Assembly (NCBI RefSeq): GCF_000246855.1 | Contig: NC_016609.1 | Location: 6,398,744-6,462,743, forward strand | Source of the DNA: Niastella koreensis GR20-10 | Lineage (GTDB): Bacteria > Bacteroidota > Bacteroidia > Chitinophagales > Chitinophagaceae | Reading direction: 5' to 3' | Length of the DNA: 64,000 bases | Part shown: in pieces, positions 28,931 through 64,000 of the stretch | Numbering within the stretch: position 1 is the stretch's first letter | Layout: every line of letters begins with the position of its first letter | The notes under the pieces: model-generated | The model's input: only the letters and a program-made list of their open reading frames with translations | What the model was told of the DNA's origin: nothing | Databases searched by the model: none | Program-made: the position numbers and the translations under genes

Positions 28931-28966
28931 AGCAACTTATTTTACAATACAAAAATGTCAGTCACT

Positions 28967-30775
28967 ATGAATAAATTATTTCCGGCACTTCTGATAATAT
29001 GCTCGCTGGCAGCGTGCAAAAACAAGAAGGCCGCCACGGCGCCTGAATCCAGTAACAAAGAGCTGGCCGCCCTTTTTGAAAAGTACTATATGGACCGCAT
29101 GGCCTTGCTGCCGGTGGAAGCTACCATCAACGGCGACAGCCTGCACAACGACCAGCTGCCGGCAGAATTTACCGACAGCTACCGGCAGAAATTAACCGAT
29201 TTTTTTGCTGCTAACCTCCAGGACATTCAGCACTTCAACCGGGAACAACTCAACGAAACCGACCGCACCAGCTACGATATTTTCAAACGCGAAATGGAAA
29301 TGAGTATCGAGGGCCTGAAACACAAATATTTTTCCTCCATCGATTACAGCATCGATGGCTATGTGCCCTTTAACCAGTTTTATGGTTTACCGCTTTCCTT
29401 CGGACAAATGGGCAGCGGCGCTGGCGCTCAACCTTTCAACACCGTACGAGATTATGACAACTGGTTAAAACGGGCGGCCGCCTTTCCGGCCTGGGCCGAC
29501 AGCGCCATCGTGTATTTCAAAAAAGGGATCGATGCCGGCAATGTGCTGCCAGCGAAACTGGTAGTGAAAATGATAGACCAAATGCAAAATATGGTGGCTA
29601 CCGATGTAACCAAAAGTTTGTATTATGGTCCTGTTAAAAACATGCCCGCCGGTTTTCCAGAGGCTGATAAAAAAAGACTGACCGCTGCCTTTACCCCATT
29701 GATAAAAACAACCCTGTCGCCCGCTTTTCAAAAGCTGGCCGACTTCCTGAAAAAAGAATACCTGCCCAAAGCCAGAACCACCACCGGGATCAAAGATGTT
29801 CCCGATGGACCTGCCCTGTACAATTATCTGGTTAAGTATTGGACCACCACGGCTAAAACTCCGGATGAAATTTATACAACAGGCCTGGCCGAAGTAAAAC
29901 GTATCCGTGGGCTTATGGACAGTGTGAAAAACTCCGTAGGCTTTAAAGGCGACCTGAAAGCCTTTTTTGAATACATGCGTACCGACAAACGCTTTATGCC
30001 CTATAAAACACCTGAGGAGGTGCTCAACGCCTTCAGGAATATCCAGGCCCGCATTGAACCGCATCTGAAAGATATGTTTGGCCATACGCCCAAAATGAAA
30101 TTCGAGATCAGACAAACGGAAGCCTTCCGGGCGGCCAGCGCCAGTGCCGAATACAAACAGGGAACAGTAGACGGAAAACGCCCCGGTATTTTTTATGTGC
30201 CTATCCTCGACGCTACCAAATTCAATACTACCAGTGGTATGGAAAGTTTATTCCTGCACGAAGCCATTCCCGGTCATCACTACCAGGTTAGTTTAACATT
30301 GGAAAATACGGCGCTGCCTACGTTCAGACGCTATTTGTGGTATGGCGCCTATGGCGAAGGCTGGGCCTTGTATTGTGAAAGCCTGGGTAAAGAACTGGGC
30401 TTGTATACAGACCCTTATCAATATGCAGGGGCGCTGGGTGATGAAATGCATCGTGCTATCCGCTTAGTGGTTGATGTGGCCATGCATGCAAAAAACACGA
30501 CGCGGGAAGAGGCGATCGCCTATATGATGGAAAACGAAGCCATTTCAGAAGAAGGCGCCACAGCGGAAATAGAACGCTACATGGCCATTCCGGCACAGGC
30601 CTTAAGCTATAAGATCGGCGCTTTGAAGATCCGGGAACTGCGCAACAAATACAGCCACGAGCAGGGTGCTAAGTTCAGTTTATCCGCCTTTCATGATGAA
30701 TTCCTCCATTTCGGTTGCATGCCGCTTGAGCTGGTAGAAAAGAATATGGATGAGTGGGCTGCTGCCAATAAATAA
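28967..30775 (+). CDS. DUF885-family lipoprotein (probable peptidase)
   Basis: 602 residues from ATG 28967, with a lipoprotein signal (LLIICSLAACKNKK). The DUF885 signature FLHEAIPGHHYQVSL is present near residue 430; HExxxxHH is thought to bind zinc, and family members are predicted peptidases. YGEGWALYCESLGKELG and the final GCMPLELVEKNM are also typical. The upstream ATG (28955) adds four residues before the signal peptide. The protein is probably attached to the outer or inner membrane facing the periplasm. The gene stands alone and is closed by a G+C-rich terminator. Confidence 0.88.
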   Translation: MNKLFPALLIICSLAACKNKKAATAPESSNKELAALFEKYYMDRMALLPVEATINGDSLHNDQLPAEFTDSYRQKLTDFFAANLQDIQHFNREQLNETDRTSYDIFKREMEMSIEGLKHKYFSSIDYSIDGYVPFNQFYGLPLSFGQMGSGAGAQPFNTVRDYDNWLKRAAAFPAWADSAIVYFKKGIDAGNVLPAKLVVKMIDQMQNMVATDVTKSLYYGPVKNMPAGFPEADKKRLTAAFTPLIKTTLSPAFQKLADFLKKEYLPKARTTTGIKDVPDGPALYNYLVKYWTTTAKTPDEIYTTGLAEVKRIRGLMDSVKNSVGFKGDLKAFFEYMRTDKRFMPYKTPEEVLNAFRNIQARIEPHLKDMFGHTPKMKFEIRQTEAFRAASASAEYKQGTVDGKRPGIFYVPILDATKFNTTSGMESLFLHEAIPGHHYQVSLTLENTALPTFRRYLWYGAYGEGWALYCESLGKELGLYTDPYQYAGALGDEMHRAIRLVVDVAMHAKNTTREEAIAYMMENEAISEEGATAEIERYMAIPAQALSYKIGALKIRELRNKYSHEQGAKFSLSAFHDEFLHFGCMPLELVEKNMDEWAAANK

Positions 30776-30797
30776 TACATAAACAGAGCTTTTTATC

Positions 30798-30825
30798 TCC
30801 CCCCGGTTCAGCCGGGGGGATTTTT
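30798..30825 (+). terminator. Terminator after DUF885 gene
   Basis: TCCCCCCGG / CCGGGGGGA pairs over 9 bp around a 5-nt loop and is followed by TTTTT. Confidence 0.85.
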
Positions 30826-30887
30826 ATTTTTAGGAATCCCTGAGCGCTGCGCTCCTTGGCGTAGGTGAGGAGTAGAGGGCCTACACT

Positions 30888-31580
30888 ATTCATTTTTATG
30901 AGTTCCTGATTCAAAATGCAGGTCTTACTTTTCATTTTGCAGGTTCCATAAAGCAAATAGCACTTCCGTTAATTCATTTTGTTGGTTCCTTAATCAATTT
31001 ATTGCCTTCCCCGTTTCAATCAGCCATCTGCTCCCGGCCCGCAGCATGCTACTCAAATCGGCAGAAAGCCATCAATTTTTATGTTTGAGCCACCTTAAAT
31101 CAAGTACAACCCTCCAATAGTCAATTTCCAGGGCCCATAATTTAATTCCAGGTCCCGGCAATTTATTTTCTTACGTCCAGGCGCAGCTTTTTTCATAACA
31201 AAAGTTAGTAGAGACCCATAAAAAGTTAATGGAGTGCTACAGAGATTTATTTTGAACCTCCAAAAAGTTAGTTGATGGACTCCAAAAATCAGTTGATAGC
31301 TAAAATAAATCGCATGACGGCCTCCAAAAATCGCATGACAGCTCCAAGATTTACTTTTAAGGTAAGCCAATCAATTTTCGTTAGGCAATAAACTATTTTG
31401 ACCAGGGCATCATTCACTTTGGGTTAGCCATGAAGTATTTAAGTCATCGCATGAACTACTTTGCTACTTCCATGTGCCATTTGCCTCATCCAATGAAGCA
31501 AAGATGTGACTTCATAAGCCATTTATGTCATCCAATGTGTTATTGTTGTCATGCAATAAGCTGATGTTGTCAAAAAAAAT
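30888..31580. repeat. Degenerate tandem array, about 33 units in strict 21-bp register
   Basis: Cutting the sequence every 21 bp from 30888 gives units that share a layout without insertions or deletions over about 690 bp: an AT-rich block at positions 3-9 (often TTCATTTTG or TTATTTTG), a more G/C-containing middle, and TTCCA/CTCCA/TCAT near positions 15-19. C occurs at position 17 in 18 of 33 units by eye. Neighbouring units are most alike (for instance those at 31308 and 31329 share AATCGCATGAC at the same phase; those from 31434 on share a GTCATCCAAT-type end), while distant ones have drifted. No spacer structure exists, so it is not CRISPR. The minus-strand frame through part of it shows a seven-residue period but is short and broken. 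Function unknown. Confidence 0.75.
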
Positions 31581-31597
31581 GCAAAAGACGATTTTGG

Positions 31598-31768
31598 CTA
31601 AATTAACCTCCTGATATGGGCCGCCACCTCCGCTAAATCATTATTCAGTTGATGCCCCCAACCAACAATTTTATAAAATGTAGCCTGCGGAAATTGCTTT
31701 TCATAAAGCGACAAATGGGAGAACGGCACTGTTTCATCATCGGTAAAAGAAGACCGAATAGAAAAAGA
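31598..31768 (-). pseudogene. 3' remnant of an alpha/beta-hydrolase-like gene
   Basis: On the minus strand the frame ending at 31598 reads FTDDETVPFSHLSLYEKQFP, then ATFYKIVGWGHQLNNDLAEV and AAHIRRLI before a stop. This looks like the end of an alpha/beta hydrolase: the D-ETVPF acid loop and the GxGHQ catalytic His. Upstream the frame closes at 31769 without a start or nucleophile motif, so only the last 56 codons survive. It borders the right end of the 21-bp array. Confidence 0.5.
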
Positions 31769-31920
31769 CTATTCCTACGAGGTCCATGTTGAATTCCAGA
31801 TCGATCCCACCAGTTTATCCACGATACGTAATAATTTTTTAGCCTTTATAAAAAATAGCAATGAGATTTTGTAACCTTTACTCCTAACCGGGGATCAAAT
31901 AAGTAAATTATAACGCAGGC

Positions 31921-32259
31921 ATGGATAAACAAATATTTTACATATGGCTCACAATCATCATTTGTGCTTTTTTAGCCTGGTACTTCCGGCACAGGGATGG
32001 GCACAAAGAACGGATGAAGCTGATTGAACAGGGCATCAACCCCATGGAAAAAGCTGCCAGTGATCGCAAAACAAGCTGGATGAGCGCCGCCATTGTTATA
32101 GTGGGCATATGCATAGGGATGATAATAATCTCCATACTGGTGAAGTTTAAATTATTAAATCACTTTGGCAATGCCTTCCCCCTGGCAATACTGGGTTTGT
32201 GCGGCGGCATTTCTCTGATCATTGCCAATGTAATAAAATGGAACAGAGACAAGCATTGA
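31921..32259 (+). CDS. Small membrane protein, DUF6249-like
   Basis: 112 residues with three hydrophobic segments (about 5-23, 52-75 and 82-104). Between the first and second is HKERMKLIEQGINP, a block seen in small DUF6249-type proteins encoded next to ECF sigma factors in Bacteroidota. The function is unknown; it may help sense membrane state. The ECF sigma gene starts 3 bp after the stop, so the two are one operon. Confidence 0.75.
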   Translation: MDKQIFYIWLTIIICAFLAWYFRHRDGHKERMKLIEQGINPMEKAASDRKTSWMSAAIVIVGICIGMIIISILVKFKLLNHFGNAFPLAILGLCGGISLIIANVIKWNRDKH

Positions 32260-32262
32260 AGC

Positions 32263-32808
32263 ATGGACGAGATCTACATTCAAAAAGTATTAGATGGAGA
32301 TGTTCAGGCTTTCCGGTATTTTTTAAAGGAATATAAAGATATGGCCTATACCCTGGCCATCTCGGTTGTAAAGGATGAATTTGTGGCGCAGGAAGTGGTG
32401 CAGGACGCGTTTTTAAAAGCATTTGGAAACCTGCAACACTTCAACAAACAATCAACCTTCCGTACCTGGTTCTACCGGATTGTTATTAATGAGTCATTGA
32501 AACGGCTAAAGCGCCTGCGAAATGAAAAGATCATCTATGGGCACGAAGACGAGGAGGCCGCCATTGATAACAGCATGCTGTTAAACATGCAAAAAGAAGA
32601 ACAGCTAAAAATGATCAACACGGCATTGGACCAGCTCGATCCCAGGGAAAGCCTGGCATTGCGGCTTTTTTACCTGGAAGAACAGAATACCAAAACGGTG
32701 AGTGAATTAATGGGGGTGTCTGTTGCCAATATTAAAGTATTACTGTTTCGGGCAAGAAAAAGCATGTTGCAGGTTTGTAATGAATTAATCAAGCGCAGTA
32801 AAAGGTAA
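32263..32808 (+). CDS. ECF-type RNA polymerase sigma-70 factor
   Basis: 181 residues. Region 2 (VVQDAFLKAFGNLQHF, TFRTWFYRIVINESLKRLK) and region 4 (LDPRESLALRLFYLEEQNTK followed by SELMGVSVANIKVLLFRARK) are both present. It has no region 3, as expected of ECF factors. It is flanked by two small membrane proteins with 3-bp gaps; the following one is a candidate anti-sigma partner. The regulon may include the TlpA-like gene downstream. Confidence 0.93.
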   Translation: MDEIYIQKVLDGDVQAFRYFLKEYKDMAYTLAISVVKDEFVAQEVVQDAFLKAFGNLQHFNKQSTFRTWFYRIVINESLKRLKRLRNEKIIYGHEDEEAAIDNSMLLNMQKEEQLKMINTALDQLDPRESLALRLFYLEEQNTKTVSELMGVSVANIKVLLFRARKSMLQVCNELIKRSKR

Positions 32809-63166: not shown

Positions 63167-63835
63167 ATGGAATCGCATATTGTTAAAATAAAGACCATCA
63201 AACAGGTTACACACGATGTAAAAAGTTTTCGCATGGAGAAACCTGCTGGTTATGTTTTCAAACCCGGGCAGGCAACCGAAGTAGCCATTAATAAAGAAGG
63301 CTGGAAAGAAGAGCGAAGACCATTTACGTTTACCTCATTGAATAACGAACCCACTCTTGAGTTTACGATAAAACGATATGCCGAACATAAAGGCGTTACC
63401 AATCAGCTCCATCAACTGGTGCCCGGCGATGAATTGATCCTGCACGATGTATGGGGTGCCATTGAATTCAAAGGGCCTGGTTATTTTATTGCCGGCGGCG
63501 CCGGCATAACACCCTTCCTCGCCATCCTCAGACAATTACATCGCGACAATCAGATAGCGGGCAACACCCTGTTCTTCTCCAATAAAACCGCAGGCGATAT
63601 TATTTATGAAAGCGAGTTGAAAGATATCCTTGGCAACAACTTTATCAATATCCTAAGTCGCGAACCAAAAGAAGGATATGAAAGCGGCAAGATAGATGAA
63701 CCTTATCTGCGTTCACACGTAACCGATTTTAATAAACATTTTTATGTGTGCGGACCTGATAAAATGATTAGTGACATTAATGGTACTTTAGAGAAGCTGG
63801 GCGCGAAACCGGATGCTGTTGTTTTCGAAAAGTAA
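63167..63835 (+). CDS. FNR-type flavodoxin/ferredoxin reductase
   Basis: 222 residues. FAD motif RRPFTFTS, then a phosphate-loop-like YFIAGGAGITPFLAILRQL and NAD(P) end FYVCGPDKMISDI. There is no [2Fe-2S] domain. It can shuttle electrons from NAD(P)H to ferredoxin or a flavoprotein; partner unknown. It is a candidate redox partner for the P450 in this window, but only by class. It is followed by an 8-bp-register inverted array. Confidence 0.9.
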   Translation: MESHIVKIKTIKQVTHDVKSFRMEKPAGYVFKPGQATEVAINKEGWKEERRPFTFTSLNNEPTLEFTIKRYAEHKGVTNQLHQLVPGDELILHDVWGAIEFKGPGYFIAGGAGITPFLAILRQLHRDNQIAGNTLFFSNKTAGDIIYESELKDILGNNFINILSREPKEGYESGKIDEPYLRSHVTDFNKHFYVCGPDKMISDINGTLEKLGAKPDAVVFEK

Positions 63836-63840
63836 CTGTT

Positions 63841-63936
63841 ATTAGGTTCTCAGGTTATTAAGTTCTTAGGTTCCAAACCCAATAACTTAATAACCTAAGA
63901 ACTTACAAACTCAATAACCTGATAACTTACGAACTA
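63841..63936. repeat. Inverted array of 8-bp words
   Basis: Cut every 8 bp from 63841: ATTAGGTT, CTCAGGTT, ATTAAGTT, CTTAGGTT, then CCAAACCC, then AATAACTT, AATAACCT, AAGAACTT, ACAAACTC, AATAACCT, GATAACTT, ACGAACTA. The left words are the complement type of the right ones, so the two arms can pair; AGGTTATTAAGTT (63852-63864) is perfectly complementary to 63884-63896. It may serve as terminator of the FNR gene. Confidence 0.65.
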
Positions 63937-64000
63937 TATAAATCTTCCTCTGGAAGCCTTCGCCACTCTCTTCCTCGAAATATAATCCTTGCCAAACCAG
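63934..64000 (-). CDS. Possible 3' end of a gene running off the right edge
   Basis: The minus-strand frame ending at TAG 63934 is open to the window edge and reads WFGKDYISRKRVAKASRGRF I. Only 22 codons are visible, basic, unassigned. The adjacent repeat array would separate it from the FNR gene. Confidence 0.3.
   Translation of the reverse strand, partial: WFGKDYISRKRVAKASRGRFI

What the first reader, a model, noticed from the sequence alone, without database searches (positions are those of the whole stretch)
30888..31580. 33-unit non-coding array in strict 21-bp register
Units are diverged but the register holds without an indel for about 690 bp; AT-rich blocks at positions 3-9 alternate with a C-rich TTCCA/CTCCA block near 15-19, and C sits at position 17 in 18 of 33 units by my count. 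Neighbouring units are closer than distant ones. 21 bp equals two helical turns, so AT blocks would face the same side of the helix: the array could be intrinsically curved DNA, a phased binding platform for a nucleoid protein, or the source of a repeat RNA. It is not CRISPR (no spacers). Seven-residue periodicity on the minus strand follows from 21 being a multiple of three, and stops break the frames.
Basis: seen in the sequence. Interest (0 to 1): 0.8.

Follow-up and report, generated by a model that had tools for sequence, protein, structure and literature searches.

The report
Dispersed 21-bp-unit non-coding repeat element
The array is real: it looks like an old copy of a non-coding DNA element built of 21-base units that has spread between genes in this soil bacterium, whose genome holds several unrelated repeats with the same two-helical-turn unit length.

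Summary
Lag-21 identity is 0.444 against 0.260 in shuffles (z 12.3), with peaks at 42, 63 and 84; one single-base slip lies near 31344. No frame is open and RNA folding here is not unusual. By size the genome is Niastella koreensis GR20-10. The array is one of a collinear, dispersed family: 5 matches to its right end here, 8 in sister species G009. G009 lacks it at the orthologous site.

In 1.18 Mb of this genome, every non-coding array of 110 bp or more with a unit above 11 bp has a unit of 20, 21 or 42 bp (10 of 10). With two more arrays they fall into eight families that blastn does not link. One family has nine other places at 94-99% identity, eight sharing a left edge, so it spread recently.

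I read the window array as a decayed copy of a dispersing non-coding minisatellite element. Selection on the register is not shown; indel rates are near neutral. Predicted curvature is raised in this copy but in few others. The shared 20-21 bp unit is the unexplained part.

The parts
30871..31606 (.). the 21-bp-unit array (about 35 units), right end as oriented here at the high coordinate
   Evidence: autocorrelation, periodic HMM span
31331..31350 (.). the one 20-bp unit, i.e. the register slip at about 31344
   Evidence: HMM; single-base gap against L002 at the same place
31475..31576 (.). right-end module conserved between copies; basis of model R1
   Evidence: alignment A2 of 10 copies, model R1, hits
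30779..31868 (.). segment of 1,090 bp that in G009 is replaced by a 68-bp spacer (insertion here, or deletion there)
30797..30832 (+). terminator-like GC hairpin and T run behind the DUF885 gene, left of the array
   Evidence: read from the sequence
31598..31750 (-). 3' remnant of a gene, alpha/beta-hydrolase-like by eye (recalled motif, not tested), ending at the array's right end
   Evidence: translation
28955..30775 (+). left neighbour, DUF885 protein
31921..32808 (+). right neighbours: DUF6249 protein (31921-32259) and sigma factor (32263-32808)

Best explanation
The array is a decayed copy of a dispersed, non-coding minisatellite element (family I): about 25-35 head-to-tail units of 21 bp with a right end that is conserved between copies. 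Shown: collinear copies at several intergenic sites, a sister species without it at the orthologous site, no open frame, unit similarity that falls with distance, and other non-coding arrays with the same unit length in this genome, one family of them recently dispersed. Inferred: the array grew by local duplication of whole 21-bp units, was copied as a block to new sites by a process not identified here, and has since decayed close to neutrally, its register surviving because indels are rarer than substitutions. Also inferred: two helical turns set the unit length, either in the amplifying step or through a protein that contacts one face of the DNA.
For: Copies: 5 R1 matches in the own genome at E <= 4e-5 and 8 in G009; copies align collinearly. 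Empty or replaced site in G009. Local duplication: unit identity 0.486 between neighbours, 0.344 at 16-40 units; near-identical 21-bp units in arrays of G002 and G087. Mobility of a sister class: family III, nine other places at 94-99%, eight with the same left edge, two copies 98.6% identical over 492 bp without gaps in unrelated flanks. No gene-orientation preference in 13 family I copies. Near-neutral indel share: 8 gap openings to 195 substitutions in four recent pairs.
Against: No mobilising enzyme, terminal repeat or target duplication was found for family I, and its left ends do not align. The right end is better conserved than the rest, which plain neutral decay does not predict. The AT block keeps identity at long range. 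The lag profile fits an indel share of 0.01-0.02, somewhat below the neutral benchmark 0.052 (P 0.07-0.10) and well below 0.136 (P 0.005-0.01). G009 could have lost the segment.
Confidence: 0.5

Rival explanations
1. A phased DNA platform under selection: AT blocks every two turns bend the DNA or are read on one face by a nucleoid-type protein, and the 21-bp spacing is kept for that.
For: AT block in phase array-wide; predicted bend above shuffles in 12 of 14 family I copies and 11 of 11 other arrays; most units in unrelated families also 20-21 bp; moderate indel deficit possible.
Against: Bend reaches z 2.9 in only 3 of 14 copies, and any repeat at two turns adds its bends; indel share in recent pairs 0.041, near neutral; weak avoidance of informative positions; site not conserved in G009.
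Confidence: 0.25
2. The array is an arm structure: units in inverted orientation once formed a long hairpin, as in the arrays of G002 and G087, and family I has decayed beyond recognition.
For: G002 and G087 arrays have inverted halves (84-bp identity 0.64 and 0.74-0.75; shuffle means about 0.52). In family I the right-end profile matches segments 12-16 and 20-26 units away better inverted than direct (0.42 vs 0.27, 0.35 vs 0.26) and 16-20 equally (0.54); 4 of 14 copies exceed all 15 of their shuffles.
Against: The window copy does not (0.548, shuffle maximum 0.583); most segment pairs correlate better direct; folding z about -0.2. G002 and G087 are tied to family I by the R1 match alone; blastn does not link them to the window array.
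Confidence: 0.1
3. Source of a repeat RNA.
For: One other copy, L011, folds better than shuffles on both strands (z -2.34 and -2.27).
Against: The window copy does not; no Rfam match; no orientation relation to genes.
Confidence: 0.05
4. Remains of a coding heptad-repeat gene.
For: 21 bp is seven codons; heptad-coding genes in this genome give the same lag (L055, L049).
Against: At least 7 stops in every frame of 9 copies, no frame below 4.1% stops over 14 copies, no consistent codon-position bias of substitutions in 7 pairs.
Confidence: 0.04
5. A diverged heptamer (7-bp) slippage array that has acquired a 21-bp higher order.
For: 7-bp arrays are common in this genome and G009; unrelated array L097 has raised lags 7 and 14, and L002 and L006 show z 2.5-3.3 at 14 and 28.
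Against: Family I averages at lags 7 and 14 are near baseline (0.275 and 0.271 vs 0.260).
Confidence: 0.06

Closest known systems
Bacterial minisatellites (VNTR arrays)
   Same: head-to-tail units, local duplication, intergenic
   Different: units strongly diverged; whole arrays dispersed as collinear copies; variability between strains unknown
Short heptamer repeats (LSSR/STRR; TAACTGA repeats, PMC4679880, abstract and passages seen)
   Same: intergenic direct repeats in scattered lineages including Bacteroidetes; the passages cite a proposal that 7 nt reflects polymerase slippage
   Different: unit 21, not 7; lags 7 and 14 near baseline in family I
REP/BIME and other dispersed extragenic repeats (recalled; named in PMC3751351, passage)
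   Same: dispersed, intergenic, non-coding
   Different: no palindromic unit found in the window copy; no link to a RAYT/Y1 transposase shown
MITE-like non-autonomous elements (recalled)
   Same: short, no genes; family III copies nearly identical with a common left edge
   Different: no terminal inverted repeats or target duplication recognised by eye; body made of 21-bp units; family I lacks a common left end

Membership tests
Minisatellite | tandem direct units of about 10-100 bp | tested here: met
   lag 21, 42, 63, 84
Minisatellite | unit number varies between strains | not testable with these tools
   no second strain held
CRISPR array | conserved repeats separated by unrelated spacers | tested here: not met
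   the periodicity runs through the whole unit without spacers
Heptamer LSSR | 7-nt unit | tested here: not met
   family mean lag 7 0.275, lag 14 0.271, baseline 0.260
MITE | shared ends / terminal inverted repeats | tested here: inconclusive
   shared right end, no shared left end; no dedicated terminal-repeat search was run
MITE | mobilised by a resident transposase | not tested
   two Y1_Tnp matches and one IstB remnant exist in the genome, no link shown
REP/BIME | palindromic unit | tested here: inconclusive
   window copy shows no inverted similarity above shuffles, but some family profiles do
Iteron or partition centromere | conserved unit beside a replication or partition gene | tested here: not met
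   units diverged; neighbours are DUF885, DUF6249 and a sigma factor
Coding repeat gene | an open frame | tested here: not met

The most novel reading that the evidence does not exclude
Niastella koreensis carries a whole class of intergenic elements, unrelated in sequence, whose one common trait is a unit of two DNA helical turns. That would imply a helical-phase-dependent machine, an amplifying or mobilising enzyme or a DNA-wrapping protein, that makes or keeps such arrays.
Probability: 0.2. Interest if true: 0.8.

Novelty: new variant of a known kind. Interest (0 to 1): 0.45.

Why it matters
If unrelated non-coding arrays in one genome settle on 20-21 (or 42) bp units, something physical such as helical phase sets the unit length, and a recently active family (family III) gives a direct way to find the agent. 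It would be a satellite-like element of bacteria that spreads without genes. If it is plain slippage history, the array is ordinary decaying spacer DNA and a caution against reading function into a kept register.

Tried and rejected
IS21 end repeats as the source of 21-bp arrays: PF01695 gave 5 matches in the own genome, one of them (L134) an IstB fragment without array. IS200/Y1 or RAYT mobilisation: two Y1_Tnp matches exist, no link to the arrays was found; the ends of family III do not fold unusually. Strong selection on the register: the slip count (47 slips in about 382 units over 14 copies) first looked convincing, but simulation and copy pairs put the indel share near neutral. Terminator or promoter role: 13 family I copies and 12 other arrays show no clear orientation preference. 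A gene shared by the flanks: none consistent. Coding origin and heptamer origin: not supported. Viral contigs: no exact match to one right-end pattern. Papers: ten searches, listings seen; none listed a description of these arrays. One search found no paper with Niastella, intergenic and tandem repeats together. The library holds openly licensed papers only.

Limits: 'non-coding' means outside ORFs of 100-110 aa or more chosen greedily (130 aa), so short genes may be included. R1 searches score only a capped number of candidates per genome (150, 20 with stricter filters). Shuffles per array were few (20; 40; 15). The simulation starts from identical units.

Full report
OBSERVATION. Autocorrelation of 30830-31600 against 300 dinucleotide shuffles peaks at lag 21 (0.444 vs 0.260, z 12.3), 42 (z 11.7), 63 and 84 (z 8.1 each); only lags 25 and 83 (z 3.1) otherwise pass z 3 among lags 8-89. 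A 21-state periodic HMM puts the array at 30871-31606, 35.0 units, with one slip at about 31344. Units resemble near neighbours more than far ones: 0.465 at one and two units, 0.33 at ten, 0.28 at twenty-five, 0.256 off register.

WHERE IT IS. The own genome is one contig of 9,033,684 bases, the published size of Niastella koreensis GR20-10 (PMC3751351, passages seen). The array lies between a DUF885 gene, with a terminator-like hairpin behind it, and a block with a DUF6249 protein and a sigma factor. A short 3' remnant of another gene on the minus strand touches its right end. In G009 the two blocks stand 68 bp apart, so N. koreensis has gained, or G009 lost, 1,090 bp. Three other Niastella loci with the DUF885 gene (L138, N. 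vici; L260; L261) have no 21-bp array in the DNA held.

A FAMILY. DNA searches and a sequence-only model of the right end (R1) found 5 matches in the own genome at E <= 4e-5, 8 in G009 and 3 within one array of G002; 7 of the 10 genus genomes gave none. G008 has one weak DNA match, at a 21-bp-periodic stretch. Another own place, L016, holds a short related piece. All 10 loci scanned (L008 and L009 are one place) have 21 as best period of 15-30. Of 11 loci, 8 have 21 as best period of 10-60 (L031 and L035 are one place); the other three, weak R1 matches L036-L038, are not periodic at 21. Copies align collinearly, at about 65-88% in the longer matches. Right ends share a module, left ends do not align. 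Over 198 genomes of the order R1 hit the own genome, G087 and, weakly, G184, whose locus shows no such period. G002 and G087 are tied to the family by R1 alone; blastn at 1e-4 does not link them to the window array.

NOT CODING, NO UNUSUAL RNA FOLD. Nine copies have at least 7 stops in each of six frames. Over 14 copies the unit-phase frames carry 4.1-10.5% stops against 6.6% expected. Substitutions in seven pairs show no consistent codon-position bias. The window array folds as its shuffles do (z -0.22, -0.19); the one other copy tested, L011, folds better (z -2.34, -2.27). No Rfam family reached threshold in the window.

IS THE REGISTER SELECTED? Over 14 copies the HMM counts 47 slips in about 382 units (related copies share some). 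A simulation that decays a perfect 33-unit array fits the window's lag profile best at an indel share of about 0.01-0.02; a share of 0.052 (BPS/indel 19.3 in bacteria generally, PMC5464527, passages) gives P 0.07-0.10, and 0.136 (106 indels to 779 substitutions, PMC5833318, passages) gives P 0.005-0.01. Four recent pairs have 195 substitutions and 8 gap openings, 0.041. A moderate indel deficit is possible; strong selection is not shown. In these pairs substitutions fall on informative unit positions at 80/568 and on the others at 109/622 (Fisher P 0.11), while the pooled rank correlation is -0.45, P 0.04: a hint of constraint at most. Unit identity at distance 16-40 is 0.344 against 0.268 rotated, carried by the AT block (phases 2, 4, 5, 16, 17, 19), with the centre near baseline; HMM phasing may inflate this slightly. 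Predicted bend is above shuffles in 12 of 14 family copies and reaches z 2.9 in three (window, L002, L009); 11 of 11 other arrays are above theirs, from z 0.2 to 6.4. The wedge parameters are recalled, and the A-tract control gave a low angle because such DNA nearly closes a circle, so the measure is rough.

ORIENTATION OF UNITS. G002 (about 16 near-identical units, some at 22-bp spacing, then diverged ones) and G087 (14 units, then 11 in the other orientation) have inverted halves: 84-bp inverted identity 0.64 and 0.74-0.75, shuffle means about 0.52. The window array shows none (0.548, shuffle maximum 0.583), but 4 of 14 family copies exceed their shuffles, and the family's right-end profile matches three left segments as well or better inverted than direct. 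So an inverted ancestry of family I is neither shown nor excluded.

THE WIDER PATTERN. In 59 evenly spread 20-kb stretches of the own genome (1.18 Mb; none holds a known family I copy, window and L042 left out), lag 21 is the strongest lag of pooled intergenic DNA (z 7.7), then 14 (6.7), 42 (4.9), 84 (3.3), 22 (3.1), 63 (2.6). Of 330 intergenic segments of 150 bp or more, 25 are periodic at z > 5.5: 11 at 20, 21, 40, 41 or 42, 8 at 14, 3 at 11, 2 at 16, 1 at 24. Fundamental periods of the 24 non-coding arrays of 110 bp or more are 7 (4), 8 (3), 9 (1), 11 (3), 20 (2), 21 (5), 42 (3), none assigned (3): all 10 above 11 bp are 20, 21 or 42. These ten make six families by blastn; L040 and a second array in L044, merged with neighbours but seen, make eight. 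Against a simple story: G009's sample has 0 of 8 such arrays; five other genomes together have one 21-bp array among 11, besides one of 24 and one of 52; the non-Niastella DUF885 loci have one of 41 bp among 2. A weaker lag-21 excess also appears in pooled intergenic DNA elsewhere (z 6.3 in G009, 4.2 in G018, 2.8 in G027, 1.5-2.0 in G002, G013, G015 and the DUF885 loci). Tandem Repeats Finder gives 144 non-coding arrays in 141,940 non-coding bases here, against 28 in 41,429 (G009), 26 in 34,557 (G018), 13 in 16,063 (G002), 3 in 5,364 (G015), 7 in 29,783 (G027), 2 in 17,435 (G013) and 30 in 78,326 (DUF885 loci); many have 7- or 8-bp units, and some of its '21' rows are heptamers.

MOBILITY. Family III (array L098) has 14 other hits in the own genome; nine are 94-99% identical over about 440-460 bp, and eight of these begin at the same base. 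The query stops short of the right edge, so lengths are lower bounds. Two copies held in full are 98.6% identical over 492 bp without a gap, with unrelated flanks. Family II (L074) has 11 further hits: ten at 75-81% and one of 37 bp at 89%. So DNA of this unit length does move in this genome; for family I, movement is inferred from its copies and the G009 site. Flanks show no shared gene and no clear orientation preference.

VERDICT. The window array is real and non-coding. The best reading is an old copy of a dispersed 21-bp minisatellite element; a role in binding or bending is possible and unproven. The question worth work is why unrelated arrays in this genome share a unit of two helical turns. 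The searches named under Tried and rejected listed no earlier description.

Noticed in passing
L098:15937-16447 (G000:6215937-6216447) and nine other close places in the own genome: Family III: a non-coding element of about 0.5 kb with a 21-bp period, 94-99% identical at nine other places, eight with the same left edge: recently mobile, mechanism unknown.
   Followed up: partly
L054:7385-7658, L074:10520-10829, L087:8640-8900: Family II: 42-bp units that alternate a motif with its inverse; 11 further hits of L074 in the genome.
   Followed up: partly
L270:1108-1632 and L274:1306-1662 (G087, another family of the order): Young arrays of near-identical 21-bp units in two inverted halves.
   Followed up: partly
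L071:5132-5720 (G002): Array of about 16 near-identical units of 21-22 bp followed by diverged units in inverted orientation.
   Followed up: partly
L096:12542-12712, L041:18923-19129, L053:10449-10649, L101:386-641, window 63771-63986: Short arrays of 7-, 8- or 11-bp units whose two halves look inverted by eye, as in long hairpins; common in intergenic DNA of this genome.
   Followed up: no
L144:2555-2821 (uncultured Chitinophagaceae): Non-coding array of a 41-bp unit downstream of a DUF885 gene.
   Followed up: no
window 31598-31750, minus strand: 3' remnant of a gene, alpha/beta-hydrolase-like by eye, directly at the array's right end.
   Followed up: no
L134 (G000:4209256-4209456): Fragment of an IstB-type gene, open for 143 codons.
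   Followed up: partly
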